Below, piece after piece: positions 7,798 to 60,575 of a DNA stretch of 64,000 nt. The stretch is from positions 6,661,017 to 6,725,016 of the forward strand of contig SCHM01000004.1 of the NCBI GenBank assembly GCA_004123355.1. The letters are read 5' to 3'. Position numbers and translations under genes: made by a program. The notes under the pieces were generated by a model, which searched no databases, was not told the DNA's origin, and was given only the letters and a program-made list of their open reading frames with translations. The stretch is from Amphirosellinia nigrospora (taxonomy: Eukaryota; Ascomycota; Sordariomycetes; Xylariales; Xylariaceae). Positions within the stretch are counted from its first letter, which is position 1, and each line of letters begins with the position of its first letter.

Positions 7798-9908
7798 CTT
7801 ATCCTCGTACGACTGCCACAGCCTTGTAGGGTAGTATCTTGCGAACTCCGTGTGGGACACTGTGTGGCACTGTATTGCGCACTGACCAGGGTCCGTGTGA
7901 CACCAAAGCATCGACACTCGCTTCATACGCGCCTAGGCACCTTCACTATTGGCGCCAACATCCTCACATTTTCAAGTCTACTTATATCCATAGGCATTGT
8001 TTCTTGGGTGTGGTTTAGTCACGAGAATGATACCCGGTGGCGTCAATTGGTGCTCGAGCAACGTCTTGACACAATTGTTACTCTAAGCTCCATTTTCATA
8101 AGGTTCGGCATGATGACACAGGCAACTACGGTCATTGCAATGCTCGCCGCTTTGACAGTCGAGTCAGCCCATTACGGAGGAATCCGGTTCAGTGAAGTCC
8201 CTACAATGTCAATTGCACGATTTTCTAACACGGGCCCCTTCTCGGCACTTGTACTTTTTGTGAGTACGATCCTTATAAGTGACAAACACGCATTGATACA
8301 TATCTAATGGAAGGAACTCTACTAATCTGGATCCTGAATCCCAGTGGAAAGCATTAAATACGGGGTTTAATTGGCCATTCACAACTATTTTAGTAGTTTG
8401 CTTTACTTCTAGTGTCACGCAATTTACGTCTACTCTTCTCTTAAGAGATCTCAATGAGGGTTCGATTACTAGCCTTTCCCAAAATAGTACGGCTGGTGTT
8501 GGCTTTGGATTCGACACCTGGGTTGCGGAGAATATGGAGCGTTTACTTTACCAAAATCGCAACTACTGGACATCGCCGCCGGCTGGCTTTCCTAGCTTTG
8601 CGGAATGGTCTAAACCACCGAAAGTTGACTCCGACTCGGCTATAATGGACTCAGTGAAAGACACAGGACCCAATTTGCGGGCATTTATGCCCATGCTGCC
8701 GCCAAAAGTCCGAGCTTCTCTGATTGATTATCAGGGCATAGCTGATGTGTTTGATACGCGCGTGTTCTGCTCCCGGCCAACCGCCCACTTTAACAACGAC
8801 GACCAACTGTCTTACGAATTTAGCGGAACGATAGTACATGGAAATCTCACTGATGAAATGAGCCAGTTACTAAGATTGCCTGAGAATCACACGAGCACGT
8901 TCGAGTTTAGTACCGTCAACCTTGGACCTGGCAGTCTTTTGTTTTTGCAACTCGATACTTCTGGTGGCATGTTAAGCAGCTTGGATCCGACAATCAACGC
9001 ATCTCTACTAAACAGTGCTTTTTACAACGATACTTGGCATGCACAGACCTTGGCTTCTTTGCAGCTAAGCAATGGATCTGTAGAATGGCCGGTCGAGCTA
9101 GGCCATGCGTTTTTATTCGTTTCCATGGAATTTTATAACTCAACCAACTCCACTTGGGACAAACAAAAGAATTACGAAGATTACGAACTATTTGGGGTAA
9201 ATCAGACTACGGCGGTGGGGAACGGCGTTTGGCTCGAGTTTCCGAGAGACGATTCCAATGTAAATATTGGGGATTCAACATGACTGTATGCTACGACGCC
9301 TTGTAAGTCAGAATTTTGAGGTAATTATACTTAACAGGGCGATTAGAGGCTTACATAGTATAAAAATGCAGATTCGCCCAAAGGCCTAGAGAGCTTCGTG
9401 TCAAGCATCACCAGAGCTTCCCAATTCAAGCTTCCCGAAGTTCAATCGCCAGCGAGCCCGTAGTAAATTGGAACGCGGCAACTACGAGCTTCGATACTGG
9501 TAATATCTCCAAGCGATATCTTAGGCCCTCTCCGCAACAGGCTTCAGAATACATCTTTCGTTTGGACAAAAACCCGATAGATGATCGCTTGCTTGATATT
9601 CAAAGTAGTTGGAGTCCTTCACAATGGATGCCGTACTTATGGGTAGTTGATACGTATTCAGGTGAGAACAACCTCCACAGCAGGAATCGAATGAACGAGG
9701 AATTAATTCACTAACTCTGCATGCAGCGAGTATTGGATACATCCGCTGGTTCTACAATGTTACTTTAGGTATCGATCTCTCGGGTCTATCCCTAACAAAT
9801 GCTAGCAGCCAGTCTCAAAGCTACTGGCCGCTATTGGAAATGGAAATGTACGATTTTATTTACGGCGCGATATTGGAACCCTTTCCCGAGTTATTCGAAA
9901 TCGCTGCT
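7798..9908 (+). pseudogene. Fungal multi-pass membrane protein, N-terminal part, split by element W
   Basis: Exons read as about 7798-8259, 8345-9302, 9372-9661 and 9727-9908, with GT-AG introns of 85, 69 and 65 bp. Exon 1 has no ATG in its open frame, so the true start lies upstream and is unresolved. Membrane segments are predicted near 7955-8020 (IGANILTFSSLLISIGIVSW), 8110-8160 (TTVIAMLAALTV) and 8360-8420 (FTTILVVCFTSSVTQFTSTL). A large N-glycosylation-rich, probably extracellular region follows (for example NYWTSPPAGFPSFAEW, DTRVFCSRP, GGFNMTVCYDA). The order matches an uncharacterised Pezizomycotina family whose C-terminus is the exon at 60576-61144. A -1 break lies in the GGGG run at 9269-9272; one extra G restores it. 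The coding frame runs open to 9908, where a retrotransposon LTR begins. No function is known to me. Confidence 0.75.
9904..9908 (+). repeat. Target site duplication CTGCT, left copy
   Basis: CTGCT immediately precedes the left LTR of element W (TGTCA...). The same five bases directly follow the right LTR at 60571-60575. A five-base duplication is normal for LTR retrotransposon integration. Confidence 0.93.
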
Positions 9909-10122
9909 TGTCACGGATAAATGGGTCTATGGTGAGCCCTAGGGACTGGGGCTCGCTTTAACTATAGTCCGAGTGATTGTTTATTATATATAGGATTTTA
10001 ATATATTTATCCTAAGTATATAGAACTTTTATTTTAGATTATTTAAATATATTTTATTTAAGCTTTTTTAAAAAGTGCACTAGTTTATTTTTATATTAAA
10101 TTGTATTTATAAATACGTAATA
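9909..10122 (+). repeat. W left (5') LTR
   Basis: 214 bp, starting TGTCA. It aligns end to end with 60356-60570 at a constant offset, apart from one base in a T run. The intact right copy ends TGACA, the inverted complement of TGTCA; the left copy's end reads CGTAATA through transition changes. The first 65 bp or so are of normal composition; the rest is AT-rich. Confidence 0.92.
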
Positions 10123-10135
10123 GTTATAAGCTTAG
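10123..10135 (+). promoter_or_regulatory. W primer binding site for initiator tRNA-Met fragment
   Basis: gttataagcttag lies directly after the left LTR. It matches the complement of bases 61621-61633 of the initiator tRNA-Met gene in this window (GTTATGAGCCCGG) at 9 of 13 positions, and the four differences are all G-to-A or C-to-T, as RIP would produce. Copia-type elements prime from a tRNA-iMet 5' half cut in the anticodon loop, which is the region matched here. Confidence 0.7.
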
Positions 10136-13100
10136 TTCGCTAAAACTAGTATTTTATTTTTTTAAAGCAAAAACTATTAAAGTAAACTTTTATAATTTTA
10201 TTTTATTTTTATAAACTTTATTAAATCGTAAAGCGATTATTTTAAATATTATTTATTTAATCGAAAATATTAATTAAAAAACTATTATTAAAAACGCGTT
10301 TTTTTAAATACCCGTAAACTATTTATATAAATTATTAAGCTATAATTTTACGCTAAAATCCGCAAAATATAAAAACTAATTAATTTAAACAAACTAGATT
10401 TATTTATTAATTAAAATATATATTTAAAGCTTTTATAAAAAAAACTATAATAATTAAACTTAATAAATAATAAAAAAAAATATTAAATAGCTTATAAAGC
10501 TTAGCTAAATATATTTTTTATAATTAAAATATTTATTAAATTAAAACTATTAGTTTTTATAAACAATATAAAATTATTATAAATATTAAAATTAGCTTAA
10601 AAACTTTTTTATAGTTTTAGCTATATAGTTTAGCTAAACTAATAAATATAATATTTTATTTATATAAATATAAAAACCGTACTATTAAATATATTTAATT
10701 TAATAATTATTTAGCTAATCGTATATAAAACGATTAATTTATAAATTTTCGTAAAAGCTATTAAAAACTTTTTAATATTTATAAAATTAGCTTATTAGTT
10801 TTATATATAATAAACTTATAAAAAAGCGCTTAAGCAAGCTATTTTTAAAAAAATTAAACTAAAAAAATAATATATTAAATAATATAAAATATATTTATAA
10901 ATATAAATATTAAATTTATTTAAAGTTTATAAAATATTTATAGCGAAAAACTTTTTAAAAACTATTAAAATAAAAATAATTTTTAATTAAACTTATTAAA
11001 AACTCGTAAAGCTTATAAAAATAAATAATTTAAAAAACTTATAATAACTATAAAATAGTTTAGCAAAGTTTTTAAACTTTAATTTATTAAAAATTATATA
11101 TAATAAATATAATAGCAGTAAAATTTTATAACGCTAAAAAAAAAATCGAACAATTAATTAAAGAATTTATAAAAAAGCTAAAATAAATTTATTAATAAAA
11201 TAAATTAAATAAATACTTTGTTTTTATATTTTAAATATTAATAATATTTATAAATAAACTTTATAAAAATATAAACGTTTTAAAAAATAATTATAAACTT
11301 TACGAATTTTAAAATTAAAATTTTTATTTAATAAAATTTTTAAAATTAAAACTAAATAAAACTACGGGCGCTAAAAAAACTACGCGCTAAAATCGAAAAA
11401 AAAAAGCTAAAAAGTTTAAAACTATATAAACAAACGTTTTATTTATAAAAAATTAAATAATAATAAATAGCTAAAGTTTAATTTAGCTTATATAATAATT
11501 AATAAAACTTTAATAAAGTTTTTTTAATTAATTAAAATTTATATAATATTAAAGTATATTTATTATATATTTTTAAAATATAATATTAAATAATTATAAC
11601 GCTATATATTTAGTTAATAATAAAAATCTTTTAATATAAAGTTTATTAGTGCTTTTTTTAAAAAAAGATTTTATAAATATAAATATTATATTTTTTTTTA
11701 TTTTTAATAAAAATAAAAAATTATTAAAAACGTATTTTCTAGCGTTAAAAAAGCAATATAAAAAATTTAATGTTTAAAAATATAATATTAATAAAAAAGT
11801 TTTATATAAATATAATTTTAAAAGCTCGACTTAAAATATAAAATCTAATACTATAAATATAACTATTTTTTTTATTTTAAAATATTTAGCAAAATATTAT
11901 AATAAAATTTTTATTAAAATATATAATTTAGTTTTTTTTAAATATAGTTTTATTTTTATTTATTTAAATAAATTATTAATAATTAATAATATATTTAAAA
12001 AATTATTATAAATATTGCTAAAATAATCGTTATTATTTTAAAACCTTTTTTAATATATATTTTAAAAGCTTTAATAAAACTTTATAAAAATATTAAAAAG
12101 TTATAATATTTAAAATTAAAATATTTAAAACTAAAATTATTAAAAGCTTTAGTTTATATAGTTTAAAGTATTAAAATTAAAAAAATTAAAAAAATAAACT
12201 ATAAAATATACGTTAAAGCATATATAAAAAGCGTTATTTCGCGTAAACTATTAAAATAACGCGTAGCGTAGCTATTCTAAAAAATTAATTAAAATTTATT
12301 TAATTATTTTAAAAAATATAATAAAATATTTTAGCTATTTAGGATTAAAATAAATATAATAAAATAATTTATATTTTTATTTTAGTATAAAAAACTAAAA
12401 TAATAATATTTATTATATTATATTAGTTTAAGCGCTAAATAATATATTAATATAAGCTTTTTATATATAAAATATATAATAAAAAATTATAATAATCGTT
12501 AATAAAAGCTTTATTAATTTTTAGTATTAAAAAAATAATTATAATATTAATATTAAAGTATTTTAAGCTATATAAAAAAGCCCGTAAGCAAAAAAAAAAA
12601 AAATAAAGCAAAAAATTATATTAAAAGTTTTAAAAATGTTTTAAAAAATAAAACTACTTAAAAAGCTTTAGCTAAAAATAGTTTATAAAATTTTATAGCT
12701 ATATAATAAAAGCTTTTTTAAAGCTTATAATTTTTATTTTTTATAAAAATATTTTTTAACTAGTTTTAATATTATTTCTAATAATATTACTAAAATAATA
12801 ATTAATTAAATAATAAATTTATAGCTAAATTAAAATATAATTTAAATATATAGCTATAAAATATATTTAATAAAAAGAAATAAGCTTATAAGCAAATATA
12901 AGCGAATATATAAAATTAATTTATATATTTATATTAAATATTTAATAAGTTAAATAACTTTTAATTTATATTAAGTATAAATTTTTTAATTAAATAAAAT
13001 AATTATTATATATATATTATATTTAATAAAAAGATTTTTTATAAAAAAAGCAAAAAAAACTAGCTTTTAAAATTAATTAAAAACTATTATAATAATTATT

Positions 13101-15384
13101 ATAAAAAAACTTATACTAGAAAATTTATTAAATATAATTAATATATTTTAAAAAAAGCGTTAATATTTTTAGCGAAATTAAAAATAATCTTATAACTATA
13201 AACTTATTATTTAAAAGTTAATTAAAAAAGTATAAATTAAAAATAAAATCGTTTAAATAGCTTAAAAAATAAATTAAAAAATATTTAAAAGTTTATAAAA
13301 ATTAAACGTTAAAACTTTTAACTTTTTAATAAATATTTAATTTAAAATAATAACTTATTAAAGCAAAAAAACAGTTTAAATTAGCTAATATATTAAAAAA
13401 TAATTTTATAAATATAAAAATAACTTTAAGTATAGCTAAACTAATAAATAATAATTTTCGATCTTTTTATAAAATATATTTAATAGATTTAAAAATAACC
13501 GAAAACGCGCAAAAAAACCTAGCTAAAAACTATATAATAATAAGCAAGTATTCGGCTTAAAATTTAAATATTAATAAAAGTTTTATATAAAAAAAAAATT
13601 TAATCGAAAAATTTAAAAAAAGCCTTTTAATTATAAAATTAAAAGTAAAAAAAAAAAAATAACGCGATTTTTACTGCTTTTATTAAATAAATCTATAAAA
13701 ATTAAAAAATTATTATTTTTAATAATTATAGCAATAATATATTAAAATAAAATAAAACGCTTTAAAGCTATATTTTAATAGCTTAAAATTTATAAAAACG
13801 ATTTTTTTAAGCTATTTTTAAAAATATAAAAAAATTTAGCTAAATATTTATTAAAAAATCGATTTAAAAATAATATTTCTAAAGAAATTGCTAACTTTTA
13901 ATAGTTTAAAATAATAAAACTTATATTATACTATAAAGCTAAATATAACTTATTATTTTTAAAATAAATATTTATATATAAATTTAATAAAAAAAAGTAT
14001 TTAAAAGTATATAAAATATATTTAATAGTTTAAAGAAATTTCTAGTACGAAAATATGTTTTAATTATATATTATTACGTTTATAGCTAAAACGTTTAAAA
14101 TTATAATAGCTATAGTTATATAGTTCGATTTAAAAATAAAATAGTTCGATATTATTAACGCGTTTTTAAACGTTTTTAAAAAAAAAAAGAAATTTATAAT
14201 ATATAAATTATTTAATATTTTAAATAAAAAAATATAATAGCGCTGCTTATAAAAACGCTATATAATTTAAAAAACTTATTATTATTATAATATAATAAAT
14301 TTTTAAACATTTTAAAAAGCTTTAGTTTAATTTTATTACTAAAAAAGCTTTATTTATTTTATTTAAAAAATCGTAAAATATATATATTTTATATAGATAA
14401 TTTTTTATTATATTATAAAAAGTACGAAAAAAAAAGCTAGAAAATAATCGATAAAATTAAAAAAATATATAAACGTAAAGAATAAAAAAATATATTAGTT
14501 TTTAAAAATAAAAATAATTAAAAACCGTAAAACTAAAACGTTTACGCTGCTTTATAATTAATATATTAAAAAATTATATAATATTATAAGCTAAATAATA
14601 ATAGTTAAATTTTAATAATTTTTTTATTATTTAAAAAACTAAAAAAATATTTAAAGCAAACTATTAAAGCTTAAATTAAAGCATTTTAAAAACGCGTAAA
14701 GTTTATTTTATATATTACTATTATAATCTAATTAAATATAGCTTTTATAGCTATTTAATTATTTAAATATTTTATTAATCTAAGCTTAAATTATTTAGCT
14801 ATAGCTAATTAAATAATTAAATATTTATATTATATAAAATATTTAAATATTATTTATAAGCAATATAAACAAAGCGCTTAAGCATTTTTATATTAAAAAA
14901 CGCTTCGTTTAGCGATAATAAAAAAATATAAAAATTATTTTATAAATATATTATTTTTTATTTAGTAAAATAATCGTTTAAAAAGCTATTTAATAAAATA
15001 ATATTTATTTTAATTATTAAAGCTAAAAATATTATAAGCTTAATAAAAATAAAAACTATAATATTAAAAAAGCTTTTTAAAAATATATAGCTAAAGCTTT
15101 ACTAAAAATAAATAATTTATTTAAATAATATTTAAACGATTTATTTAATTATAAAAAAAACAAATAAATTAATATTTAGCTACGCTATATAAATATAAAA
15201 TATATAAATTAAGTAAAAATACTATAAAAGCTTTTTTAAAGTTATATATTTAGCTATAAATTAAATACTAGTTAATAAGCTTATTAAAAACTTATTATAA
15301 ATATAGTTTAAACATTTTTATATATTTATTAATTTATAAATATATATTATATAGTTTATAATAATTAAGCAAACTAATTAATAT
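10136..15384. other. W internal region, left part (decayed)
   Basis: Very AT-rich sequence with no surviving ORF. Remaining C and G sit mostly in AGCT, AAC/GTT and CG-type contexts, with CpA/TpG and CpC/GpG strongly depleted, as expected after saturating RIP. It should contain W's gag-pol, but no motif can be read by eye. Confidence 0.7.
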
Positions 15385-15389
15385 AAAAG
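15385..15389 (+). repeat. X1 target site duplication AAAAG, left copy
   Basis: AAAAG precedes the left X1 LTR. The same five bases follow the right X1 LTR at 40999-41003. Confidence 0.8.
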
Positions 15390-15582
15390 TGTTACATTTT
15401 AATAAAAAGGGTAACTTTTATAAAAGGTCTTTATTATAAAAGTGGAGCTTAGTTTTATAAATTAAATAAAAAAGCTAAAAACTAAATAAATATTTTACTT
15501 TTACTAAAAGCTTTATTTAATATTTATTTTTTTTATTATATAATATAAACTTAATATTATATTATTTTAGTAAAGCTTATTA
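15390..15582 (+). repeat. X1 left LTR
   Basis: Starts TGTTACATTTTAATAA. It shares its whole length with 40805-40998 and, inverted, with 28523-28734 and 37231-37448. The inner end is taken at GCTTATTA, which agrees with the target duplications of both X copies. Confidence 0.85.
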
Positions 15583-18066
15583 AATAGTGCAATAAGTTTA
15601 TAATTTTTATTTTTAAGTTATTTTAGTTTTTTTTTTTTGGCTAGTAGTTTATTTATATAGTTATTTTTAATCGCTTTAACAATATTTAATACTGTTTTAT
15701 AATTTTTATAGTATTTTAAAAATATTTAAACTTTATATTAGCTTATTTTATATCGATTTATATTTTAAGAAAATAAAAAAGCTTAAAAAAGTTTATATTA
15801 ATATTATTTTATATCGATTTATATTTTAATAAAATAATAAAAATATAAAATACTTTAATATTATTTATTTAGAAAAACTATATTATTATTTTATAACTTT
15901 ATATAATTTAAATAAAATAATAGTATTAATTTCCGATAATTTATATTAAATCGACTAGTTTTAGTTTAATATTAACGCTACAATTTTTAATATTACGCCG
16001 ATTTAATTATAGTTAAATATTTATATTTTAATATTATTTTTAAAATAGCTTTATTATTTTAATATTAATTATATTTAATTAAAGCTAATATTTATAATAA
16101 TATATTATTTTTATAATTTTAACTATATTATACTTTAGTTTTTTTATACGTTATTTTATAATTTTTAAAAAAAATTAGTTATTTATTTTTTATTATAATT
16201 TATTATTATTTAATAATTTTAGCAAATTTAATAAAACTATTTATTTATATTATATTTTAAATTATTATATAGTTTATTATTTTTCGGTATAAAAATATAA
16301 ATTATAATAATTAATCGATTTATATATTATAAAATAAATAATTATAAAATTATATATTTATATAATTATTTTATTTTAAAATTTATTTAGATTTTTATAT
16401 TTATTATAGTATATTTAACTACGTTATTTTTAATAAGTTTTTTTAATTAGTTATTTTATAAATTATAACCGGAGTTTATTTAAAATTTAAAGCGGATATT
16501 ATTATTAAAGCTAAATTAAAAAAAATTAATAGTTTATTTTAAAAGCTTAAAAGTTTTATAATTAAATACAAATTTTAGCTTTAGTTAAAAATTTAATACT
16601 AAAACTAATTAAAGCTAGTTTTATATTAATATTATTATTTAAGTTTAATATATTATTATAATAGTTTAAATAATTTATAATAACTTTAATAAAAAAACTT
16701 AATAAAAAATTTATACTATTTTTTACTACGCTTTATTAAGCTATAATATTTAGGCCGGTATTATTAAATTTTAATTTGCTGCTAAAACTATTAATAATAA
16801 CTAAATTTTGTTTATATTTTTAAAATAAAATATTTAAACTTTAATATATTAAAAAAAGCATAAAATATAATTATTTATATTAAATTTTAATATATTTTTT
16901 TATTTAAGCTTGTTTATAATTTTAAAATAATAAATTAAAAATTTATTTAAACAAATAGTTTATAAAATAAAAGTTATTTATTTATTTTTAATAAATTTAA
17001 TAATAATATTTAAATATAAAATTATATTAAAAAAAAGTTTAAATAAATAAATTAATTTAATATTATTATATATTAAATAATAGCTTAAAAAAACTTGTTT
17101 ATTTTATTAATAATATTATTAATATAAACTAAAAAGTTAAAAATATTAAATTAATATTAGCTAAGCTAGCTATAAATTAAAATAAAATAAAAAAAGTTTT
17201 AAAATTAAAAACTAAAAGTTAATTTTTAAGTTAACTTTTAAACTAACGAACTTTAGTTTATTTATATATTAGGCCGGTTTTATAATATAAATATAAACAT
17301 TATTAATAAATATCGCGCGCTTATTATATAAACAATTTAACTAGATATATAAATTACTATTAATAAATACGTTAATTATTTATTATATAACTATAACTAA
17401 TATATTTTTTAGTAAAAACGTTAATAATTAATATTAAAATATATTATTATTAATTAAATAGTTATATAATATAACGATTTAATAATATTATTATAAAAAC
17501 GCCCGTAATATTAAGCTAATAATTTTTAATATATTAATTTTATTTTTAAATAATTATTTTTATTATTTTTATTTATATATTAACCGGTATTTTTATTAAG
17601 CATATATTAATTAAACTTTAAACGTTTTAAGTAATATATATTTTATAATAATTTAATATTTTTAATATATATAGCGCTAATAACTTATATAATATTAATA
17701 ATAAATATATTAAGCCGATTAAAAATATATAATATTAATTTTATATAAATATTTAAAAATTTATATATTTAAACGTAGCTTATATTATTTAAAAAGTACG
17801 TATTTAGTATTTTTATACTTTAAAATATTTTAAAACTTTTATTTAAAAATATCCGATATAAAGTTTTAACGTATAATTTAATTTATAGGTTTAATAGTTA
17901 ATAAAAAACCTTTAATTTTAATTATCCGATTAGTTTAATATGAAAAAGCTAAATAAATTCTTTATATTATATTAATAGTTTAATAAAGCTTAAAAATAAA
18001 TAGTTTTTAATATTTAATATTTAATTATATTTAAAACTTATTATTAAAACGCTTTTATAAAAAATC

Positions 18067-18213
18067 TTAATAATAATAATAATATAGTAATAATAATAAT
18101 AATAATATAATAATAATAATAATAATAATAATATAATAATAATAAATAATAATAATAATAATATAATAATATAATAATAATAATAATAATAATAAAATAA
18201 TAATAATAATAAT
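18067..18213. repeat. Trinucleotide microsatellite (ATA/TAA)n within X1
   Basis: About 147 bp of nearly pure AAT/ATA units with a few interruptions. The matching place in X2 (about 34723-34754, opposite strand) has a much shorter TTA run with a CG interruption, so the array probably expanded, or was homogenised by RIP, in X1. Confidence 0.85.
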
Positions 18214-37724: not shown

Positions 37725-37765
<41 letters not shown>

Positions 37766-46561: not shown

Positions 46562-48789
46562 AAATAATGCTTTATTATGCAGTTTTATTATAAATATTAA
46601 ACTATACTAAAAACTATTTGTTTTTAGATTTTTTAAGGTTAAAAAATATTAATTTTCCCGGCAGCAATTAGCGCGCGTAATTATATATATCTGTTAATTA
46701 AAGCAAATATTGCGCTTTAGCGTCGATTTATTTTATACCTTTACCTTTGTACTCCCCGCGAAGCCTTTAAATAAACTAGTTATTTAGCTTTAAAAAAAGC
46801 TTAATAAAATATTTCCGTATTTTAAATATACTAGTTTTTGTAGCGTAACTAAAGTTATTATAAAATTGTAAACGTTACGGATTTTTATTAATTAATCGTT
46901 CTGAATATTCTAGTTTTACTATAAAATTTTTAAACGTTTTGGTTCGCCGTTAAAGTTTATAAATATACTAGTTTTACTATTAAAACATAGTTATAAATTA
47001 TATATACTTTATTTTACTCCTATTTGCGCATAGTTTTTTTATTCTTGAGTTATTATTTATAACGTTACGTAAAAACAATAAATCGTAAAACTAGTATAAT
47101 AATAATCTTTTTTATGTACTTAATTATTTACCGAACTAAACGCTAGATTTATTATTAGAAAACTTTTATTTAAAGTTTTTTTTTTTTAATTTTTAGCGTA
47201 GTAACTATTAAAATAAGCATTGTTATTATTAGCATAAGCTCTGTTAAAAACGTTTATAAATCGTCCGATAATATAATTTAAAAAATTAAAACAAAACAAA
47301 AAAATAAAATTAGCGCAAAAATAACCGAAGCTAATACTAATATTAAAGCTTAATTAATAATAATAAATTAAAAACTTACAAAGTTTTCGTTTAAAAAACT
47401 AAACTAGTAGCTAGGATTTAACGCCGAAACTATAAATATATTTTTAAAACAATAGCAAAACAATAATTTTAAGCAAAATCGAATTAAACTAAATATAAAA
47501 AAGCTATAAAAAAATATTAAGCAAATTAACGATAAATTTAACCTAATCGTATAAATAAATTAAAATTTTAACGCTTTTATAAAGTTCTAAAAAAATCGAT
47601 ATTATATTTTATTAATATCCTATTTTTAACCGCATTAGACTAGCAAGTTTTCTATAGTACGGCAATTAACCTTAATAATATAGCTATAAATAAAAAAAAA
47701 ACAATAATAATGCTCCCGCCCTTACTTCTAAATATAATAAGCGTAGCAATAATACCCCCCCCCGCCTTTTTTCGTTGCCCTAAGGGTAATAAAAAAACAT
47801 GGAATAATCTTTTAATTAAAACAAGCAATAATAATAACAATAGTAATAACAATAAAAACAATAATAGCGGAGCGGGCAACCCCGATAACAATCTAAATTA
47901 TTAAACAATAAAGCTAGCTTTAGTAGTTATAGCTATAGCAATAAACGTTATCGTTATAAAACCCCGTTTTTAACTATATTTATAATAAAAAATACTTATA
48001 AAATTAAACGTAAAAACATTAAAGTTTTAAACCCTAACTAAAACAACCTAAAAAATAAAAAAGTCGTTATAAATAAAAAAAATATTTATTAAATACGTAT
48101 ATATTTTCCCGACGTATTTAAGCTATATATAAGCTCGATAATATAAAATTATCGAACAGCAGCTAAATCTTAAAGCTATTTAACTACTTTTTCATAAGTT
48201 TTACCTTTTTATAATAAAACAATAAAGTTAAGCTTATTAATCGTTATATTTAATAAAAAGCAAGCTTAAGCTTAATATTTAAAAAGCTAAAAAAACGTTT
48301 TAAAATGTGCTTTAAATATACTATAAAAAAGTTCTTTAAAAATAACTTTTTTTACTCGATATAGCGCAAAATAAAAACGTATTTACTTAATTTATTTAAT
48401 ATAAGCTATAATATACCCGTAAAAATAAAACTTTAGCGTAAAACAATTCTAACTAGCAAAAATTATAAAAAATATCCGTAACTAATAAGCTAAAATAATC
48501 GTTGATTATATTTATTTACTAAAAAAAAAAAATATTAAACAAATATATAAAAAAGATCGATAAAGCGCGCTATAAATTAGAATAAAAAGCGGAGCATAAG
48601 TTCTTAAACGCTAAACTTTTTTGCGACTATTTAAAAAATAATAATAAAAACCTTTAGAATTTACGTCCTAAATATAATAACTATAAGTATTTTAATTATT
48701 ATCGATTAAAAAATAAATACTGATCCTATTATAAACGTTGTTATTATTTTAATAGTAGGCGTAATAAATAACGCAACAATAATTATAAC

Positions 48790-48995
48790 AAAAATCGCAG
48801 TTATTATAAAAAAAGCAACAAAAAAAGTGCTTATAAGGACAAAGAACATAATAATAAGGATAAAAAACGTAATAGCAGTCGCAATAGCAGTCAAGACTAT
48901 AGCCACAACCGCGACCGCAGCCGCGACTACAGCCGTAACTATAGCAGCAATTATAAGCGTTACTACGATAAAAAACGCAAGCTATTACAGCGTAT
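48790..48995 (+). pseudogene. Y2 gag remnant, Arg/Ser-rich nucleic-acid-binding tail
   Basis: One frame reads a series of RNSSR, SQDYSHNRDRSRDYSRNYSS and YKRYYDKKRK before a stop. Upstream (about 48660-48720) lies a transition-altered stretch with spaced Tyr/Cys codons that may be an eroded CCHC zinc knuckle. This arrangement, at about 2.3 kb into the element, fits a gag C-terminus. The exact gag frame is broken. Confidence 0.5.
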
Positions 48996-50884
48996 ATAAG
49001 CTAATAACGTGCGTTTAAATAAAAGAAAATCTAAATATAATACCGACAAAAGATACTATAATAGTAATATTTCTATATATACTTAGTTTAGCTTTTTTTA
49101 TTATAAATATTATAAAAATATAAATTATCCATATTTTTGTTTTATATATATGGAAATATAAGCTGTATATTCCGTTAAAATATATAGCGCGTATTAATAC
49201 TTTTTACTTATCGCTCCTGAGCGATATATATATAAATATTATACTTAAATACTACTTTTATAAAATAAACTTTTTAATATTTAAGCTAGTACGAATCGGC
49301 TAAAAAAAATATAGTTAAAAAATAAAGTACTTCCGATAATAATTCGTTATCTATATAAAATAAATTAAATAAAATCTTTAAATCGGAAATACTTATATTT
49401 AAAACGCTAAACGCGGACGCGTATAATAAAGCTTTACGCTTAAGCTATATACTTTCGCTTTCGCGCACGCGCTTCGCCAACCGGTTAAAATATAAAAATA
49501 TATGCCGATCTAGGTATAAGCAAGACTATAATTAGCATAAATACTTTAATACGCTAAAGCATATAAAAAAAACACGAAAGCTAAATAATTACCGTTAAAA
49601 CAAGCGTGTAAAAATAACGCGTTAAGCTAAATTTAAGTTCTTTATTCGAAAAATCGACAATAAAAACGGCCTAAAATTATAAAGTACAAAAAAAAGTTAG
49701 GTTATAAACGAAAAACTATAACTAAGTATACTAATTAGTAATAATTTCTTTTATTTTTATAAAGCTATTATTAACTATTTAAAAGCACTATTATTTTCTG
49801 CGATTTTAATAATTTTACTATTAATTTCGAAGTTTTAGTCCGTAGTTGTAAATATAACGAAAAATTATTAGTACGCTATTATAACTATTATAGCTAACGA
49901 AAGCGCGTATTTATAGGTCGAATATAAGCTATTATTTGTTAACTGTAATTTTTATTTTATAGTAGTATATAAAAATATAATAAACATTATAATAAACGTA
50001 AAAACTCTTAAAGTTATCCTGGTTATTAATATTACGAATATTTTAGTTAAAATAAATAAAAGTACTAACTAGAATAAATTTGCAAAAATTGTAATAATAG
50101 TATATATATTAGCTTATAAAAATTAGCTATAAAAACTCTAGCTGTCGTAGCGGTTACTCTAGCTATACTATTAGCTAAAATAGTTAGCTCGGATTTTTAG
50201 CTATTTAAATTTGCTCGTTATTATAATGCCGAATTTAATATAACGCTAATTATTATAGCTACTGCGACTGATATAATGCTAATAGAACTAGTATTTATAA
50301 ATAAATTAGCTAATCTTATAGTTACCTTTATAGTAGCGCTTAGTAAAACTAGCAACTATGCTACCGGTTTACGCAAAAAATAGCATTTTTGCCTTTAGCT
50401 ATTAATACCTCCGATGTTTAGTTTTTAAATATTTTTTATTAACGTAGTAATAATTTATTATAAGCATTAAAACTACGCTGCTACCGGAGGAACTATATAT
50501 ATTAGTACTAGAAAAGCTTTTTAAATTTAAGCTACTGGAAATACATTTTACTTTAAGTATTAAAAAGCCTATAAATTTCTTTAAAAATATAATTAATAAT
50601 ATTTATATTTATACTAAAAAGGCTTTTAAAGTAGCTAAGTTTGTTAAAATTATCGAAGCTTACGATATTTAAATAAATAAAAGCGAGGTTGATATTTTTA
50701 AAATAAAGCAGCTTAAAATTCTTTTTATCGACAATTAATAAAAAATAAAGCTAAATATAAAAGCTTATCTTTTTAGTCGAAAAAATATAGAAATTTTTAA
50801 TAAAACTTATAAAACTTTATAAAATAGGTTGTATAACTTAAATAAATAAAGCTATACTTTTCGCGTACTTTATATTTATTATTT

Positions 50885-51300
50885 AGAAAAAAGTTTACGG
50901 CGTAAATAAAGGCTAAATAGTTGTTAATCTACGACAGCTTAATAAAGTTGCTATCTTTAATAGTTATTTTTTTTTTATAAAGTAAAATAATTAAAAGTTT
51001 TTGTAGAAAGGCTTACGTTATTTACGTTAATGCTATTAGTTTTTTTTATTAATTTCTAGTTTATTTTAACTATAAAGATAGGTTTATTATTATTAGCCCT
51101 TATAGTATAAAATAATCTAACGTAGCATTAATAAAGTATATAAATTCCCTGGTTATGTTTAAAAGTATATAAACAAGTTTTTTGTTTTTACTTTTATTTT
51201 TATTGCTATTTTATCGATAATATTATTTTTTTTAATACGTTCGAAAAGTATATATAGCACTTAAACATTATTTTTAGCTATTTTAGTTAAAAAATATCGC
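50885..51300 (+). pseudogene. Y2 reverse transcriptase remnant (Ty3/gypsy type)
   Basis: In one frame, interrupted by transition-made stops, GVNKG is followed by IVVNLRQLNKVA and, further on, by a segment resembling the gypsy A(I)SFFYQF...RF.IISP core. The catalytic block reads YFIDNIIFFNTFEK (from about 51208), where the usual Asp-Asp is Asp-Asn; a G-to-A change explains this. The motif order is that of gypsy-type RT in ascomycetes. Confidence 0.75.
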
Positions 51301-53689
51301 TATATTACTAAAGAAATCTTTTATTAGTTATTTTTTATTAAACTTTTAAATTTCGTATTAACTTTAAGAATGTTTACTATTATTAAACGCGTATAAACGT
51401 TTAAATAGCTTGTATTTTTTAAGAACTTTTAGGCTTTTAAGCAGTATTTTCGGTATAAATAGATTTTTCCGCAACTTTTTCTTTATTACGTATAATTAGC
51501 CAAGCTTTTATAAAAACGCAAAATAGCTTTATTTGCTAAAGGTCGTTAAAAAAAAAAAGTAGTAAATAATAACCTAGGTTGTCGTAAGTACTACGTACGA
51601 ACTATATATTACGACCTTATACTAGCTAAAATCTTTTTTAACGCTATTTAAAACGCTATTTGTTCCGAAACTACGCTATACTATTATAACCTAGATCGTA
51701 TCCTATATTTATAAGTCGATAGGTATTTCGAACGAAGTTTCGGCGTTATAGTTTTTATATTAAGCTAAACTTCGAGTAAAAACCGGGCAAACTTAACTTT
51801 TTATGTAAGTATAGCTAGTTATATATTTAAATTAATATTTATTGTAAGCTAAAACTAAGTACGCCTTTTTAAACAAGAAATAGCGTATTTTATATAGGCT
51901 ATAAAAAAGCTTCGTATTAATTTACTCAAATAAACACCGTATAGTTGTTTTAATAGATTATTTAGCTACGAAAAATATTGTTAACTAACTTTATTAAATA
52001 TTTCTGTTACTAATAGAGCGAACAATCGGCTTGTTAATTTATTTATATATTTACGTAGTATAGCTTCCAAATATTCTATTTATTAAGACGCCTTAACTAT
52101 ATTCCGGATACGCTAAGTTGGCTTACTATAGTATAAAATGCTATAAACTTAAAGGCAAGTTAAAGCGATATAAGAATTTACCGTACAAACTCCGTATAAA
52201 ATATAGTAAAACATACCGCGGAAATAGTAATAAATAATACGTTTAAACGCGATTTCGAGCTAAAATATAAAGCAGACCTTTGTTATAAAAAATCTTGGAC
52301 GAATTTTATCGGGACTAATTTCGCGAGCTATATAATAACGAGGACGCTATTATTTTTTCTAAAGCCGGCATTTATTTTTTGTCGCAAACAGTTTAATTTA
52401 TAACAACACAAAAAAATCAAGCGACTTTACGTTTTAATACGTATAAACAAATATTATATGCTATATATAACAAAAAACATTATTTCGGAACCACCGTATA
52501 ATAAAAGCCTAAAACTGTATTCGATCTATAAAAAGTCGTAATATATTTAAAAATACTACAAATATTATCTAGAATACAATATTAATCGTAACAATAAACA
52601 AAAACTAATAGTAACTTATATTTAATTAAACTTAAAGATATATTACTAATATAAACAATGCAATTAATTTTATTTTATTACTACTTTTAGTTAAATTATA
52701 AATACCTTATAATAATTAAAAAGCTTTAATACGTATAATTATATATAACGGTTTTTGCTATACGTTTAAACGGACGCTTATAATCTCCGGTAATATAAAA
52801 TATACCGCCAAAAACTAAGCAATAATCTTAATCAAACACTATTTTAAATAATTAAAGTATCCTTAAAAAAATTATCTCCGATCGCAATCGCAAATTTACT
52901 TCCGACTTTTAAAAAAGCATATAAAAACATTAAATACTAAATTATTAATAACTACCGCGTATTACCTACAAAAAAATAATCTGTTTAAAAAAAAAAACCA
53001 AACGATTAAAATTATAATACACTTTATAATTATACATATCCTAAGTCGAACTAGCTTAATATAATCCCCGCTTTATAATAAAACCTTAACTCTACGTTTT
53101 TACAAGCTATATAATCTACCCCGCACGAGCAATTATTTAAGTTCAAGCTTCCTAGCCCCTCAATATACTTACGGCTAAACACATACAACTTCGAAATATA
53201 AAATCTTTACATAACTACTTATAACAAACACTAAATTAGCTATAAATTTCGCCGCTGCTATAGCGAAAAAACATTTTAATAATAAATACTAAGCATTAAA
53301 ATTTAAACTAAATAATAAAGTTTTTTCCGCCTATAAACAATTATTATTACCCGGCAGCCCCAAAAGTACTTATAGCAACGTACTAAACCTTAGGTTATTA
53401 AACACAAATCAGCAACCTAGCCTACGAACTAGATTCCTTACTACTATTATATATACCCTATTATTTCCGTCGTATAGTTATAACCGTGCAAAAACAACAA
53501 AAACCCTTTTAAGCAAACAATACCCCTGCCAAAGCCCGTCGAAACTAACTAGCACTCTAACAATAACAATAAAAAAATATCTACAAAATAAAAATTATAC
53601 TCAACATCGTCCCAACCAAAAAAAAAATAACTTCGACTACTTAATCAAATAAAAAAAATAAGGTCACAAGCACAACCGTTACACTTAGC

Positions 53690-53936
53690 ACACCACCTTC
53701 GCCACTTGCAAAAACTCATCAACAAGTACTAGTCCAGATACAGCCCCCGCCCTGCACTGCCAAAAAAAAAAAAGCAGCCTCCCGCAGAGCTGCCACTTAT
53801 TCTAGACCTGGCAAGCGCCCTTGTAGGAGGCCACGCAAAGTAATTAATGCTCCGGCTCCAGCGCCAACACCAACTCCGGTACCAACTCCTGCCAACCCCC
53901 TACTATTAACGCCACCGCACTTAACGCACCTCTAAA
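53690..53936 (+). other. Near-normal GC island in the 3' part of Y2
   Basis: About 250 bp of nearly ordinary composition, rich in C on the plus strand, within the AT-rich block. One frame reads a basic stretch (AASRRAATYSRPGKRPCRRP) followed by an Ala/Pro/Thr-rich tail ending at a stop near 53936, plausible as the end of the Y polyprotein. It escaped most RIP. Confidence 0.6.
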
Positions 53937-54106
53937 TAAGTTTCCTACTTTCGCCGAAGCTCTAAATTATAACTACCCATAAATAAATAGTAAAAAAAAA
54001 AAACAAATAAAATATTACCTAATACTATATAAAAAAAATTATAATTATAATAGCTTAGCTAAATCGATCTACTAAAGTTAGCAAAGATTTTCTATGCCCC
54101 AGCATT

Positions 54107-54307
54107 TAATAAAGCCCCTAAAAAGTCTATATTACTAATAGCTTCCCTGCACGGAGCGCAAAAAAAACCACCTAATAACACCTATATCTAAATAAACAGC
54201 TAGCACACTACCAGTCAAAAAATCTATTATTAGATCTACTACGTGGATCTAATAATAAATTCTCTTCCTTTAATCAAGCTTACTTTATAACCCATAATAT
54301 TTTCTTA
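54107..54307 (+). repeat. Y2 3' LTR
   Basis: 201 bp; it pairs with 46359-46561. The TG start has become TA, and the differences from the 5' LTR are mostly transitions. It is followed by ATTAA. Confidence 0.88.
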
Positions 54308-54312
54308 ATTAA

Positions 54313-57300
54313 TTAATAAAATATTTATTTTAAAATATAATAATTTAATATAAAAAAACCTCGATAAATAAAATAAATAATATTTAATTAACTTTTATTA
54401 AAATATATTTTAAAAAATATAAATTATATTTTTTATAAAAATATAATTTTATTTTTATTTAAAAATTTAATAAAAAAAATTTATATTATATAAATAAAAT
54501 AATATTAATTAATATAAAAAAAAACTAATAATTAAAATATTTAGCTTAAATATATTATTTTAATATAATAATAAAAAAAACTAAATAAAAATATTTATAT
54601 TATAATATTAATAAAATTAATAAATAATTAAAAAATTAAAAAAAAACCAAAAATAATTTTTAAAAAAAAAAAAAAATTAAAATAAAAACGCGAAAAATAA
54701 TACTTAAAAAATATTAAAACTTAATACGCGTTTTTAATTAAATTAATTTTAATATATTTTATTATATTATTTATAAATAAATTATAAAATAAAATTTTTA
54801 AAAATAAATTTAAAGCCGATTTAAACTATAATTTTTTATATAAAATATTATTTAATAAATTAAAAACTATATAAAAATTTTAATTAAAAACTTATATAAA
54901 AATTTTATTAAATTTAATAATATTATATAATATATTTATTTTATTTATAAAAAAATAAATAATAAGTTTTATTTTTATATAAATTATTATAAACTAAATA
55001 AAATTATAAAAAAAACTAATATTTGTTTTTTTTTATTAAAAAAACCTTAGCTTATATTAATAAAAAAAAATTTTATTTAATTAATAATAATAAATATTTA
55101 ATTATATTTATAAATTATTTAAAAATAAAAATTATATAATATTTTATATAAAATAATAATATATTAATTATTAATATTATTATTTAGTTTTATTAATAAA
55201 CTTTCGATATTTTAATAATATATTAATAATATATTATTTAATTTTTAAATAATTTAAATATATATATAATAACGTTATTATTTATTTAAAAATAAAAAAA
55301 ATATATTATTTATATATATTATAATTAAATAATTAATTTAAACTAAATTATAAATTAATTTAAAAAGTTTAAATTTTTATATTATAAAAACTAAATTTTT
55401 AAATTATATTATTAATATTAAAAAATCTAAATAAACTTTAAAATTAACGTTATATTAAAATAAAAATTTTTTATATTAATTAAAAATATATAATTTTTTT
55501 TTAAAATTTATAATTTTTATTAAAACTTTATTAATATTTAAAGTTATATTATTATATTTTTAAACTAATTAATATAAAAAAATATAAAAAATTATTTTAT
55601 TAATTTAAAAAAGCTTTAATATTTTTTTTTATTAAAATATTTTAATTATAATTTATTAATAAAAATTAAAACTAATTTTTTTAATAGCGTTAGTTTTAAT
55701 ATATTATTATAACTATATAATAAAACTTAATATTTTATAATATATTTTTAAAAATATTTTATAATATTAAATTAAACTATAATATTTATAATAAAAAATT
55801 ATTAATAATTATATTATATTTTAAAAATAAAAACTTAAATTAATTAATAGCTATAATAGATTTTTTTTAATATTTATTAATAATTAAATATTAAAATTTT
55901 TTAGCAAAAAATAATATTTAATTTAAAATAAACTAAATAATTTAACTTTTTTTTAAAATATAATTTTTTAATATTATATTATTTTAAAAAAAATAATATA
56001 TTAACTAACGCTTTATTATAAAAATAAAAAACCTAATAATATAAAAAGCTAAAAAAAAACATAATATTATTTTATAATATTTTAGTTAATAAATAATATA
56101 ATATAATTAATTTTTATATAAATAAAATTATATTAAATAAATTTTATTAAAATATATAATAAATTAAACGTTTTTATAAAATTATAATTAATTAAGCAAA
56201 TTTTTAAAAAAAACTATAAAAATATAAATATAAAAATTTATTATTAATAATAAAAAATAATAAACTAATAAATCTATAAAAACTAAAAAATAAATTAACT
56301 ATATTTTATAAATATTTAATTATTTTTAATTTTTATATTTAAAAATATATTTTATTAAAAAAACATATTATAAAATATTTATTATATATTTTAATAAAAA
56401 TAAAATATATAAATTTATTATTAAATATTATTAATAGTTTAAATTAAATAAAAATTATAATTATTGTTTAAGTTTTATAAAAAAAGTACGATTAAGTAAA
56501 AAAAAGGTTTTTTTATTAATTAAAAAATTTTTTGTTTTTTATATTTTAAATAAAAAATTTTTTATTTAAATTAAGAACTTTTTTGTTTTATTTACTATTA
56601 TATATATTTAGTTTTTAGTATTTATTTTTTATTATACAAATAATTATAAATTTAATAAAATAATTTAAAGTTAAATATTTATATTAAAAATAATAATATA
56701 ATATAAATAAATTATAAAGTTTTATTTTTAATTTTTTTTTATTATAAATTATATTAAATTTAATTTTATATTAAATTTAATTATTTAATAATTATATATT
56801 TTATTAAACTTAATTATTTAATAGTTATACGTTATATTAAACGTAATTATTTAATATTATTTGTTTAATTATATTTATAATTTTTTATTTTTTTATTTTT
56901 TTAATTTAATATTAATTTAAATATTTATTATTTTTAGGTTATAAATTAATATTATTATTATAAACTTTGCTTAAATATAACTTTTATTAAGCTATTTTTT
57001 AAAAAAATTATAGTTATTATAAAATTAGCTATTATATTAATATAATAAATATAGCAGTATTTTTTATATAATATTCGTTTATAATTTTTTTATTTATTTT
57101 TTTATTTTTTATTATAATGTTTTAAACGTAGTTTTTAGGTTTTCGAAAATTTTAAAGCTTTAAATTAATTATAATAAATACGTTTTTTAAATTTTTAAGT
57201 TTTTTTTTTTTAAACGTTTTAACTAACTTATAAAATTTTTTTTAAACTTATTAGTAAGTTTAAGCTTTTTTTAAAAAGTTTTTTTTTTAAACGTTTTAGC

Positions 57301-59406
57301 TAGTTTATAAAGTTTTTTTAAACTTATTAATAAATTTAAACTTTTTTCGAAAAGTTTTTTTTTTTTAAACGTTTTAGCTAATTTATAAAAATTTTTTTAA
57401 ACTTATCGATAAGTTTAAACTTTTTTCGAAAAAAATAAAAATTTAATATATTATAAAAATTAATATATTTTATAATAACGTTATTACTTAAAATATAAAG
57501 TTCATAATTATATTTAAAATTAAAAATAGCTTATAATTATGTTTAAAATTTAAAATAGCAATTTATGCTTATTAAAAAACTTTTTTAATTTTACCCGGGT
57601 TAAAAATCTTTTTAAAAATCTTAATATTATAATAAATTTTTTTTACTTAAAGTAAAAATTAATTATTCGCTATAATATCTAACTTTTTAATTTTATTTTA
57701 TAGCTTAAAATTATAATCTAATTATAAAGCAATAATATAATTTTAGTATATATTATTATTATTAAAATAAATATATAAAAAATATTATATATTAACGTTT
57801 ATATTTATAAATAAATCTATTGCTACTATTAATTAAATAGCCGAATATTTTTATAACGTAATTATATAGTTACGCAAAAAACAAAATACTATAGTTAATA
57901 AATTAAAATAAAATAGCAAATTTTATTATATATAACTTATTAAAAAAAAGCGAACTAGTATAACTAATAACTATAACTTACTTATTAACCTAAATATATA
58001 GTTCTTAAAAACTTAAGCATTTTTGCCCCTAAATTAAAAAGCCTTTAATATATAATAAACTATATAAAATATAAACTTATTAAAATATTTAAAATAAATA
58101 TAAATATAATAATATATTAATTATAATAAACTATTTAAACAAATAAATATAAACTATTTTTATATTATAAAAACCTTTTTAAATTTTTAAAATATTTATA
58201 ACTATAATATTAAACTATAAATTTTAATATATTTTTACTTTTATAAATAAACTATATAAACTAATAAATATAAAATATATACTAATTACTGCAAAATATT
58301 ATAAAACTATAAAATAAATAAAATTATAAATAAATATATTAATTAAAAATTATAACTATATATAAATTATTATTAAAATAATTAATTTAAGCGTATATTT
58401 ATTATAATTATATTTAAACGTTAATTTTTACGTTTTAATAAAATTATTGCTTTATAAAATTAAAATAAGTTTTTTAATATTATTTAATTTTAACTAAAAA
58501 AATCGGACTATAAATAAAAAGCTATAAAAACTTTTTAAAAAAAAAAAAACAATTTAAATAAATATATAAAAAAATAAAAAAAATAGCATAATTTATTAAA
58601 TTAACTAAAAAAACTTATAGTATATTAAAAAATATATAATTAATTAAGGTAATAAAAATTAATATAATTTAATTTTAACGTAAAAAATTATATATTAATT
58701 TTAAAAAAAAAATAATCTTAAAAAATAAATCGTTTATTAAATAAGCTAGATTTTTTTATAATATAATAAAAATTTAAAATATATAAAAAACAAAAATATT
58801 TTTATATTAAACGTTTTTATAATTTAAAAAACATTAAATTATTATATAAACTAATTAAAAAAATATTTTAATAATTTATTATTAGGTTAAAAACAAAAAA
58901 CTTAAAAAAAAAAATAATAAAACTTAAAAGCAAAAAAGAATTTATAATTAAAAAATACGGACTTTTTAATTTTATTATTAAAAGTTATAATACTAAATAA
59001 ACTAAAAAAATTAAAATCTTAATAATATATAATATTTTATAAAAAACTTTAAAAATAATATAAAAGCACTAAAAAATTTTTATAATAAAAACTTTAATTT
59101 AATTAAACTTTTAATAAAATTATAAAAATAGCTAAATAATATAAAATAATAATTTTAATATATTAATTTAAATAATAATAAAGCTATAATATAAAAAAAA
59201 AAAAACGCAAAAAAAAACCGCGTAAATATAAATACTATTAAATAAAAAAACTTTAAACAATATATAAAAAAACTAATATAATAATTTAATAATATAAAAA
59301 CTTTATAAAAACTTATATTAATAAAAACTTAAAGCGATCTTTTTTTCGCTAAAAAGCAGTTATAATTTTAACCCCGGTTAAATTATTTTTTTTTTCGAAA
59401 AAAAAA
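54313..59406. other. V internal region, right part (decayed)
   Basis: About 5.1 kb of AT-rich V sequence with no surviving ORF. It includes a three-copy tandem repeat (57197-57430) and two small GC-containing palindromes (57589-57605 and around 59364-59384). V's pol region should lie here but cannot be recognised. Confidence 0.6.
57197..57430. repeat. Tandem repeat, three units of about 77 bp, each with an internal palindrome
   Basis: Three head-to-tail units begin near 57197, 57275 and 57350. Each has a T run, then AAACGTTTTA, then a self-complementary core; the third unit's core AAACTTATCGATAAGTTT is a perfect 18-base palindrome. The units differ mainly by transitions and T-run length. They lie within V. 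Confidence 0.8.
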
Positions 59407-59700
59407 TAATTATAAATTTATAAGCTTTAATAACTATACTTTATTACTAGCTATAGCACCTATAATCTTTATTTATAATAACTACTACTTAATAAATATA
59501 TAATTACTATTCGTAATAAATATAGTTATAATAAATAAAAGCAAACATTAGTAATAAATATAACTATTTTACGTAAATATTTAAATAGCTATTTATACTA
59601 TAAATTTAAACCTTTTTTTTTTTTTACTTTATTTATAAATTTTATATATAATATATTATATATGCTAAAGCCTTATTTTTTTAAGTATAAAGCGTAACTA
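59407..59700 (+). repeat. V 3' LTR
   Basis: 294 bp beginning TAATTA and ending TAACTA, directly preceded by a purine tract. It is the intact partner of the U-interrupted 5' LTR. Confidence 0.72.
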
Positions 59701-60355
59701 TAGCTAAACAAAATAATAAAAATTATATAAATTATTTAAAAGCGAACTTAAACTAGTATTAACATTAATAGCAATAAATATAATAATAATAATAGTAGTA
59801 ATATTGGTTTTATTTAAGGTTAGCTTATAAAAATAACGATTAATAGCTTTTAACTATTAATTTAAGCGTTAAAATAACGTTATATTTTATAAAAAAAATT
59901 TATTTATAAAAAAAAATTTATATAATTTTTATATTAATATATAAATATACGTTAATATATATTATTAAAAATAACGGGTTAATTTTATTTTATTTATAAA
60001 AATAAAATAATCGCGGGCTAAAAAAAAAAGAAAAAAAAGCAAAAAAGCTTAAAACAATAAATAATATAAACTTACGCGCTTTTTACGTAAATATTAGCTT
60101 ATAGCTTTATTATTTATTAAATAAATAAACAAACGTAATATTATAACTTTTATTAGCGCTTTAATAACTAGTAAAACGAATTAAAAAAATAAAATATTAT
60201 AAAATATACGCTTTTAAAGCATTTAAAATATTTACGCTAATATTTATAACTAAAGTTTACGCTATAATAAATTAATAAAAATATTATTAATATTTTTTTA
60301 TTATATAGTTAATTTATAGCTTCGAAGCTTTAAATAGCTTTAAAACTAAAAAATA
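59701..60355. other. W internal region, right part (decayed)
   Basis: The last piece of W before its right LTR. It is AT-rich with no readable ORF. Confidence 0.6.
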
Positions 60356-60570
60356 TATTATAAATAAATAAGTTTATAATAAGCTTTAAAAACTAAAGCT
60401 TGCTTTAACTATAGTCCGAATAATTGTTTATTATATATAAGATTTTAATATATTTATCCTAAGTATATAGAACTTTTATTTTAAATTATTTAAATATATT
60501 TTACTTAAGCCTTTTTAAAGAATACACTAGTTTACTTCCTATGCTAGATCGTATCCATAAATACATGACA
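60356..60570 (+). repeat. W right (3') LTR
   Basis: 215 bp ending TGACA, the inverted complement of the TGTCA start of the left copy. Its inner part is AT-converted, and its last 55 bp or so are of normal composition, the mirror image of the left copy. Confidence 0.92.
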
Positions 60571-60575
60571 CTGCT
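60571..60575 (+). repeat. Target site duplication CTGCT, right copy
   Basis: Directly follows the right W LTR and matches 9904-9908. Confidence 0.93.

What the first reader, a model, noticed from the sequence alone, without database searches (positions are those of the whole stretch)
9904..60575. A gene split by a 50.7-kb nest of seven insertions that can be unpacked to base resolution
The AT-rich block is not amorphous. LTR pairs and target duplications give a consistent hierarchy: W contains X1 and V; X1 contains Y1; Y1 contains X2; V contains U and Y2. Target duplications are CTGCT (W), AAAAG (X1), ATTAT (Y1), TTTAT (X2) and ATTAA (Y2). Removing nested inserts gives X copies of about 8.87 and 8.93 kb and Y copies of about 7.81 and 7.95 kb, and at the Y1 and X2 sites the rejoined sequence matches the uninterrupted sister copy. 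This yields a relative insertion order: W first, then X1 and V, then Y1 and Y2, with X2 after Y1.
Basis: seen in the sequence. Interest (0 to 1): 0.85.

Follow-up and report, generated by a model that had tools for sequence, protein, structure and literature searches.

The report
Nested dead transposons splitting a gene
A gene, probably of a fungus, has been cut in two by one jumping element, into which seven further insertions landed, some inside others; the junctions can be read nearly to the base, which makes it a clean but ordinary fossil record of transposon invasion and of the mutation that silenced it.

Summary
The nest is real. Two corrections. First, I find eight insertions, not seven: V's left LTR is itself broken by a 1,918-bp element (U1), and a second element with the same ends (U2) lies inside V, so V runs 41825-59699. 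Second, nesting gives only a partial order; LTR-pair transversions (0-3 per pair) are too few to refine it. Seven insertions were checked against uninterrupted sister copies: Y1, X2, V, U1 and U2 collapse to the base, X1 to within 2 bp, Y2 less cleanly. W has its target duplication and paralogs colinear with the gene halves, but no empty allele. The block carries a strong RIP-type signature (11.6% GC, flanks 48-50%). Such clusters are known, e.g. 78 in Mycosphaerella graminicola (PMC4522978). The less expected result is a by-product: in 12 Y copies of this genome, LTR bases nearest the element's outer edge kept G/C more often than the same bases in the inner LTR (137:33 and 86:18), so mutation seems to fade over about 100 bp toward the end of homology.

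The parts
7798..9908 (+). left half of the split host gene (open-frame pieces; the last frame 9720-9908 runs open into the target site)
   Evidence: pieces 7798-8304 and 8297-9280 match paralog L047 (E 9e-10, 2e-17); pieces after 9364 have no significant match; no Pfam family over its cut-off in the pieces scanned
60571..61144 (+). right half of the split host gene (179-aa open frame 60605-61141)
   Evidence: 30.7% identity over 88 aa to L047, E 2.7e-9; 32% over 59 aa to L048, E 1.1e-6
9904..9908 (.). W target duplication CTGCT, left copy (right copy 60571-60575)
9909..60570 (+). W, base LTR element (net 7168 bp); LTRs 9909-10122 and 60356-60570
   Evidence: 0 transversions in 214 aligned LTR bases
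15390..40998 (+). X1, LTR element inside W (net 8866 bp); target duplication AAAAG 15385-15389 / 40999-41003
   Evidence: site uninterrupted in W sisters L035 (flanks overlap by 3 bp in the alignment) and L036 (aligned ends 2 bp apart)
22475..39212 (-). Y1, LTR element inside X1 (net 7809 bp); target duplication ATTAT 22470-22474 / 39213-39217
   Evidence: site uninterrupted in X2, one 5-bp target copy
28523..37446 (-). X2, LTR element inside Y1 (8924 bp, opposite to X1); target duplication TTTAT 28518-28522 / 37447-37451
   Evidence: site uninterrupted in Y2, one 5-bp target copy
41825..59699 (+). V, LTR element inside W (net 6419 bp, LTR ends AGTTA...TAACT); target duplication ATAAT 41820-41824 / ATAGC 59700-59704
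   Evidence: copies in the genome end at the same base; one 5-bp target copy in W sisters L035 and L036; net size
41923..43840 (-). U1, 1918-bp insert inside V's left LTR, without target duplication
   Evidence: 11 genome copies, this one included, cover at least 1,880 of the 1,914 query bases; the empty site is V's own right LTR at 59503/59504
56465..58048 (+). U2, 1584-bp insert inside V with the same ends as U1, opposite orientation; holds a 3-copy repeat of about 77 bp at 57197-57433
   Evidence: 36 of 40 scored genome matches, this one included, cover at least 1,500 of 1,641 query bases; empty site exact in V copies L004 and L007, two bases shorter in L010; repeat
46359..54307 (+). Y2, LTR element inside V (7949 bp), least mutated of the eight (25.1% GC); target duplication ATTAA 46354-46358 / 54308-54312
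   Evidence: V sister L049 has one target copy with the left flank aligned to the base and 9 bases matching on the right by eye, while the best computed match of the right flank lies 81 bp further on

Best explanation
One LTR retrotransposon (W) inserted into a protein-coding gene and destroyed it; the dead element then served as a landing pad for seven more insertions: five LTR elements (X1, Y1, X2, V, Y2) and two small elements without target duplications (U1, U2). A RIP-type process (C-to-T on either strand in repeated DNA during the sexual cycle) mutated all of them to 6-25% GC. Shown: the boundaries, the nesting, the partial order, the target duplications, the decay by transitions. Inferred: that RIP is the agent, that Y2 came last, and that mutation fades toward the outer edge of an element because homology to other copies ends there.
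For: LTR pairs and target duplications. Sister copies without the insert for 7 of 8 insertions: Y1 and X2, V and X1, U1 and U2, Y2. Gene halves colinear with paralog L047, and pieces of both halves with L048. RIP signature: composite index 0.98-1.10 in the eight elements against -0.28 and -0.06 in the flanks. LTR pairs differ by 17-40 transitions but 0-3 transversions each (V's two parts summed). Edge gradient: W p 2.5e-6, X2 0.0012, Y2 0.0041; 12 Y copies, Fisher p 9e-26; ratio shifting across the LTR.
Against: No reverse-transcriptase match inside the window: RVT_1 gave 41 matches in the genome, 0 here, and 4 frame pieces of Y1 and Y2 gave no Pfam family, so the LTR elements rest on structure alone. 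LTR transversions do not follow nesting (W 0 of 214, X1 2 of 193, X2 3 of 211, Y1 1 of 193, Y2 0 of 186, V 2 of 288). GC does not follow nesting between families (W 12.2%, V inside it 5.6%). The edge gradient is absent in Y1 (p 0.8) and not significant in X1 (0.12) and V (0.052). Published passages say RIP can leak into flanking DNA in Neurospora (PMC7296669), the opposite of fading inside the edge. W has no empty allele in the data; V's two target copies differ at two transition sites; the Y2 site in L049 is only partly clean.
Confidence: 0.95

Rival explanations
1. The block is an assembly artefact in which unrelated repeat copies were chained together.
For: Highly AT-rich repeats are hard to assemble; I had no reads.
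Against: Five of eight sites collapse onto sister copies to the base (Y1, X2, V, U1, U2), X1 to within 2 bp and Y2 partly, which misassembly would not be expected to produce; the contig is 8.2 Mb.
Confidence: 0.02
2. The two gene pieces flanking W are two separate genes, so no gene was split.
For: The long open frame on the right (60605-61141) is not in the frame in which the left piece runs into the target site; an intron or later decay must be assumed. The pieces nearest W on the left have no match in the paralogs.
Against: Left and right pieces match paralog L047 in the same order and orientation within about 1.9 kb, and L048 likewise.
Confidence: 0.07
3. The AT-richness comes from general mutation bias or from the elements having been AT-rich when they moved, not from RIP.
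For: The agent cannot be tested from sequence; RIP genes were not looked for.
Against: Depletion of CpA/TpG with TpA excess, LTR pairs that differ almost only by transitions, and flanks of ordinary composition up to the target site.
Confidence: 0.03

Closest known systems
Nested transposon clusters of Mycosphaerella graminicola (PMC4522978, passages read)
   Same: 78 putative nested clusters of 7.5-63 kb; LTR elements as base with target duplications of mostly 5 bp in the part of the table seen; a 47-kb example with a drop in GC
   Different: Here the inner sites are also checked against uninterrupted sister copies, and two inserts without target duplication are included
Gene disruption by transposon fissures in Pyrenophora teres (PMC5915480, passages read)
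   Same: AT-rich transposon blocks interrupt coding genes and spread them apart
   Different: There compared between isolates; here read from one genome
Helitron2-like FoHeli elements of Fusarium oxysporum (PMC5148889, passages read), compared with U1 and U2
   Same: Asymmetric inverted repeat with the 3' arm roughly 20-50 bp inside the end; one FoHeli group also starts with TGC; a 1,929-bp non-autonomous form is described
   Different: U1/U2 end in CTTTAG or mutated forms (CTCTAG in 2 of 15 inspected copies), no Rep/helicase partner was found, and no hairpin beyond chance
RIP confined to shared homology in Neurospora (PMC4858203, abstract start and passages read)
   Same: C-to-T mutation over the extent of homology with few changes outside
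   Different: Here the fading is seen inside the homologous stretch, over about 100 bp from its end

Membership tests
LTR retrotransposon (W, X1, X2, Y1, Y2, V) | direct terminal repeats (here about 190-290 bp) | tested here: met
LTR retrotransposon (W, X1, X2, Y1, Y2, V) | short target duplication of fixed length | tested here: met
   5 bp, identical in 5 of 6 and transition-compatible in V
LTR retrotransposon (W, X1, X2, Y1, Y2, V) | TG...CA ends | tested here: inconclusive
   W TG...CA; X1, X2, Y1, Y2 have TG or TA and CA or TA (RIP-compatible); V AGTTA...TAACT departs
LTR retrotransposon (W, X1, X2, Y1, Y2, V) | reverse transcriptase and integrase | tested here: inconclusive
   RVT_1 gave 41 matches in the genome, none in the window; 4 frame pieces without Pfam match; integrase not searched genome-wide; heavy mutation makes a miss likely
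LTR retrotransposon (W, X1, X2, Y1, Y2, V) | primer-binding site and polypurine tract | not tested
   no call was made for these
Nested transposon cluster | base element whose parts continue around inserts, with its own target duplication | tested here: met
RIP-mutated repeat | C-to-T bias with CpA depletion confined to repeats | tested here: met
RIP-mutated repeat | dependence on the sexual cycle and RID | not testable with these tools
   no strains or crosses; RID not searched
Helitron / Helitron2 (U1, U2) | insertion without target duplication | tested here: met
   two empty sites, read to the base apart from one ambiguous T; rests on taking the conserved CTA and CA next to the ends of the genome matches as part of the element
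Helitron / Helitron2 (U1, U2) | insertion between A and T | tested here: inconclusive
   base before the 5' end: A in 13 of 14 inspected copies, but A 52, T 25, G 7, C 1 of 85 pattern matches in the genome; base after the 3' end T in 15 of 15 inspected copies
Helitron / Helitron2 (U1, U2) | 5' TC (canonical) | tested here: not met
   5' end is TGC or TGT, TAC in one inspected copy
Helitron / Helitron2 (U1, U2) | 3' CTRR (canonical) | tested here: inconclusive
   CTAG at the 3' end in 2 of 15 inspected copies, TTAG or TTAA in the others
Helitron / Helitron2 (U1, U2) | asymmetric terminal inverted repeat (Helitron2) | tested here: met
   11-12 bp inverted repeat about 30 bp inside the 3' end, by eye, no shuffle control
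Helitron / Helitron2 (U1, U2) | 3' hairpin | tested here: not met
   4 of 4 folded ends no better than shuffles, z -0.09 to -0.82
Helitron / Helitron2 (U1, U2) | Rep/helicase protein in the genome | tested here: inconclusive
   PF14214: 0 matches, but no control genome rang either

The most novel reading that the evidence does not exclude
LTR pairs are a built-in assay for RIP: the same roughly 190 bases occur once at the edge of homology and once deep inside it. Read this way, RIP in this organism fades over about the last 100 bp of shared homology in most copies of a family, and nested insertions of known order would let one follow that process through time.
Probability: 0.6. Interest if true: 0.5.

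Novelty: new member of a known kind. Interest (0 to 1): 0.35.

Why it matters
As a nest it is a clean example, useful as a benchmark for tools that unpack nested, RIP-mutated repeats, and it shows that purine/pyrimidine alignment recovers structure that ordinary alignment blurs. The edge gradient bears on how RIP senses where homology ends, and could be measured in any RIP-active fungus with intact LTR pairs.

Tried and rejected
Dating by LTR transversions: 0-3 per pair, no power to order insertions. Ordering by GC across families: rejected, since W (12.2%) is less mutated than V inside it (5.6%). U as a mariner-type element with TA duplication: rejected, the two empty sites show no duplicated TA. 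V starting at 43840: rejected in favour of 41825. My first ends for U1 and U2 (the ends of the genome matches, as used) were moved by up to 4 bases. Edge test on five W copies (L035-L039): no usable LTR pair was found in the fetched stretches, so nothing was counted. The 12 Y copies tested are the 12 best of 15 scored and include Y2 itself; Y1 is not among them and shows no gradient. Of three V stretches fetched for the Y2 site, one (L049) showed it; L050, L051, L004, L007 and L010 gave nothing clearly above shuffles. L037-L039 gave nothing clearly above shuffles at the X1 and V sites, and L034 is the window's own copy. L044 was left out of the U end counts (ends degenerate) and L020 out of the 5' count (end outside the match). 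In the paralogs the two left pieces nearest W (9364-9711 and 9720-9908) had no significant match, but the 9720-9908 piece was searched in a frame with stops. Naming the organism: not achieved. Paper searches listed no report that I recognised as a RIP gradient inside LTR pairs; I read passages of only a few of the papers, and the library lacks most subscription journals.

Full report
Check of the observation. The window is G000:C6:6661017-6725016 of an unnamed 48.1-Mb genome. The block 9909-60570 has 11.6% GC, the flanks 49.8% and 47.6%. Because RIP makes only transitions, I aligned the block to itself in a purine/pyrimidine alphabet, then base by base.

Corrections. The sequence of V's right LTR (59408-59699) matches on the left in two parts, 41825 up to 41922 and 43841 onward, so V begins near 41.8 kb and its left LTR is broken by an insert, U1 (41923-43840). 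In the genome, 11 copies (this one included) cover at least 1,880 of the 1,914 bases used as query. A second insert, U2 (56465-58048), shares the ends of U1, is inverted and belongs to an abundant group: 36 of the 40 scored matches (this one included) cover at least 1,500 of the 1,641 query bases. Genome copies of V's end stop matching at GTAACT, which sets V at 41825-59699 with flanks ATAAT and ATAGC.

Uninterrupted sisters. For each inner insertion I placed the left and right flank separately on a sister copy. Y1 in X1: X2 carries the site with exactly one 5-bp target copy; X2 in Y1: Y2 likewise. V in W: L035 and L036, exactly 5 bp each; X1 in W: L035 with a 3-bp overlap, L036 with aligned ends 2 bp apart. 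U2 in V: L004 and L007 continue across the site with no duplicated or missing base, L010 lacks two bases there. U1: V's own right LTR is the empty site, again without duplication. Y2 in V: in L049 the left flank aligns up to one target copy and 9 bases on the right continue by eye, but the best computed match of the right flank lies 81 bp further on, so this site is only partly clean. W: no empty allele, but pieces of both gene halves match paralog L047 in order, and also L048.

Order. Nesting gives W before X1 and V; X1 before Y1 before X2; V before U1, U2 and Y2. Within families RIP load agrees: X2 keeps the G/C at 576 of 888 transition differences with X1, Y2 at 1384 of 1499 with Y1. Transversions in LTR pairs are too few to help.

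RIP and its edge. The eight elements have a composite RIP index of 0.98-1.10. In W the outer end of each LTR, next to host DNA, kept its G/C while the same bases in the other LTR were mutated: 22 to 0 in favour of the left LTR in the 5' third, 13 to 3 in favour of the right in the 3' third, p 2.5e-6. X2 (0.0012) and Y2 (0.0041) agree; V (0.052), X1 (0.12) and Y1 (0.8) do not reach significance. In 12 Y copies of the genome (one of them Y2 itself; the 12 best of 15 scored) the 5' third favours the left LTR in 11 with one tie, the 3' third the right LTR in 11 with one tie; sums 137:33 and 86:18, Fisher p 9e-26; 10 of 12 single tests below 0.05. The ratio shifts across the LTR, crossing near 100 bp. 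Sites within a copy are not independent, so the p-values are optimistic. Transversions in these pairs: 0 in 10, 1 in 2.

What the U elements are. Inspected copies begin TGCTTAAG or mutated forms and end CTTTAG or mutated forms, with CTCTAG in 2 of 15. There is no target duplication, and an inverted repeat of 11-12 bp sits about 30 bp inside the 3' end. This works like a Helitron2-type element (compare PMC5148889, passages read), but membership is not shown: the 5' end is not TC, no 3' hairpin beyond chance, only a loose preference for A before the 5' end (52 of 85), no helicase found (without a positive control).

Comparison with print. Nested clusters of this size and kind are described in Mycosphaerella graminicola (PMC4522978, passages read), and gene disruption by AT-rich blocks in Pyrenophora teres (PMC5915480, passages read). 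RIP restricted to shared homology, with few changes outside, is described in Neurospora (PMC4858203, passages read); [quoted passage not shown] I did not find the gradient inside LTR pairs in print, which is weak evidence of novelty. That RIP is the agent and that the organism is a fungus follow from the signature and general knowledge, not from a call.

Verdict. A confirmed, nearly fully resolved example of a known kind of structure, with one insertion more than reported and one by-product worth following.

Noticed in passing
window 9909-9975 and 60505-60570: Outer ends of W's LTRs escaped mutation while the same bases in the other LTR did not; the same tendency holds in 12 Y copies of the genome.
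   Followed up: yes
window 41923-43840 and 56465-58048; Two multi-copy small element groups without target duplication that share their ends; Helitron2-like at best.
   Followed up: partly
G000 contigs C9, C10, C11: Of 41 reverse-transcriptase matches 25 lie on C9-C11 (20 on C9), many without stops inside; 5 matches with the same score lie on C1 and C4. C9-C11 may be less touched by RIP.
   Followed up: no
window 61596-61667: tRNA-Met gene just beyond the right half of the split gene.
   Followed up: no
window 2296-3909 (-), 4708-5736 (+), 62621-63691 (-): Neighbouring genes: NOB1-type PIN/Zn-ribbon protein, FAD-binding oxidoreductase, alpha/beta hydrolase.
   Followed up: no
window 57197-57433: Three-copy tandem repeat of about 77 bp inside U2.
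   Followed up: no
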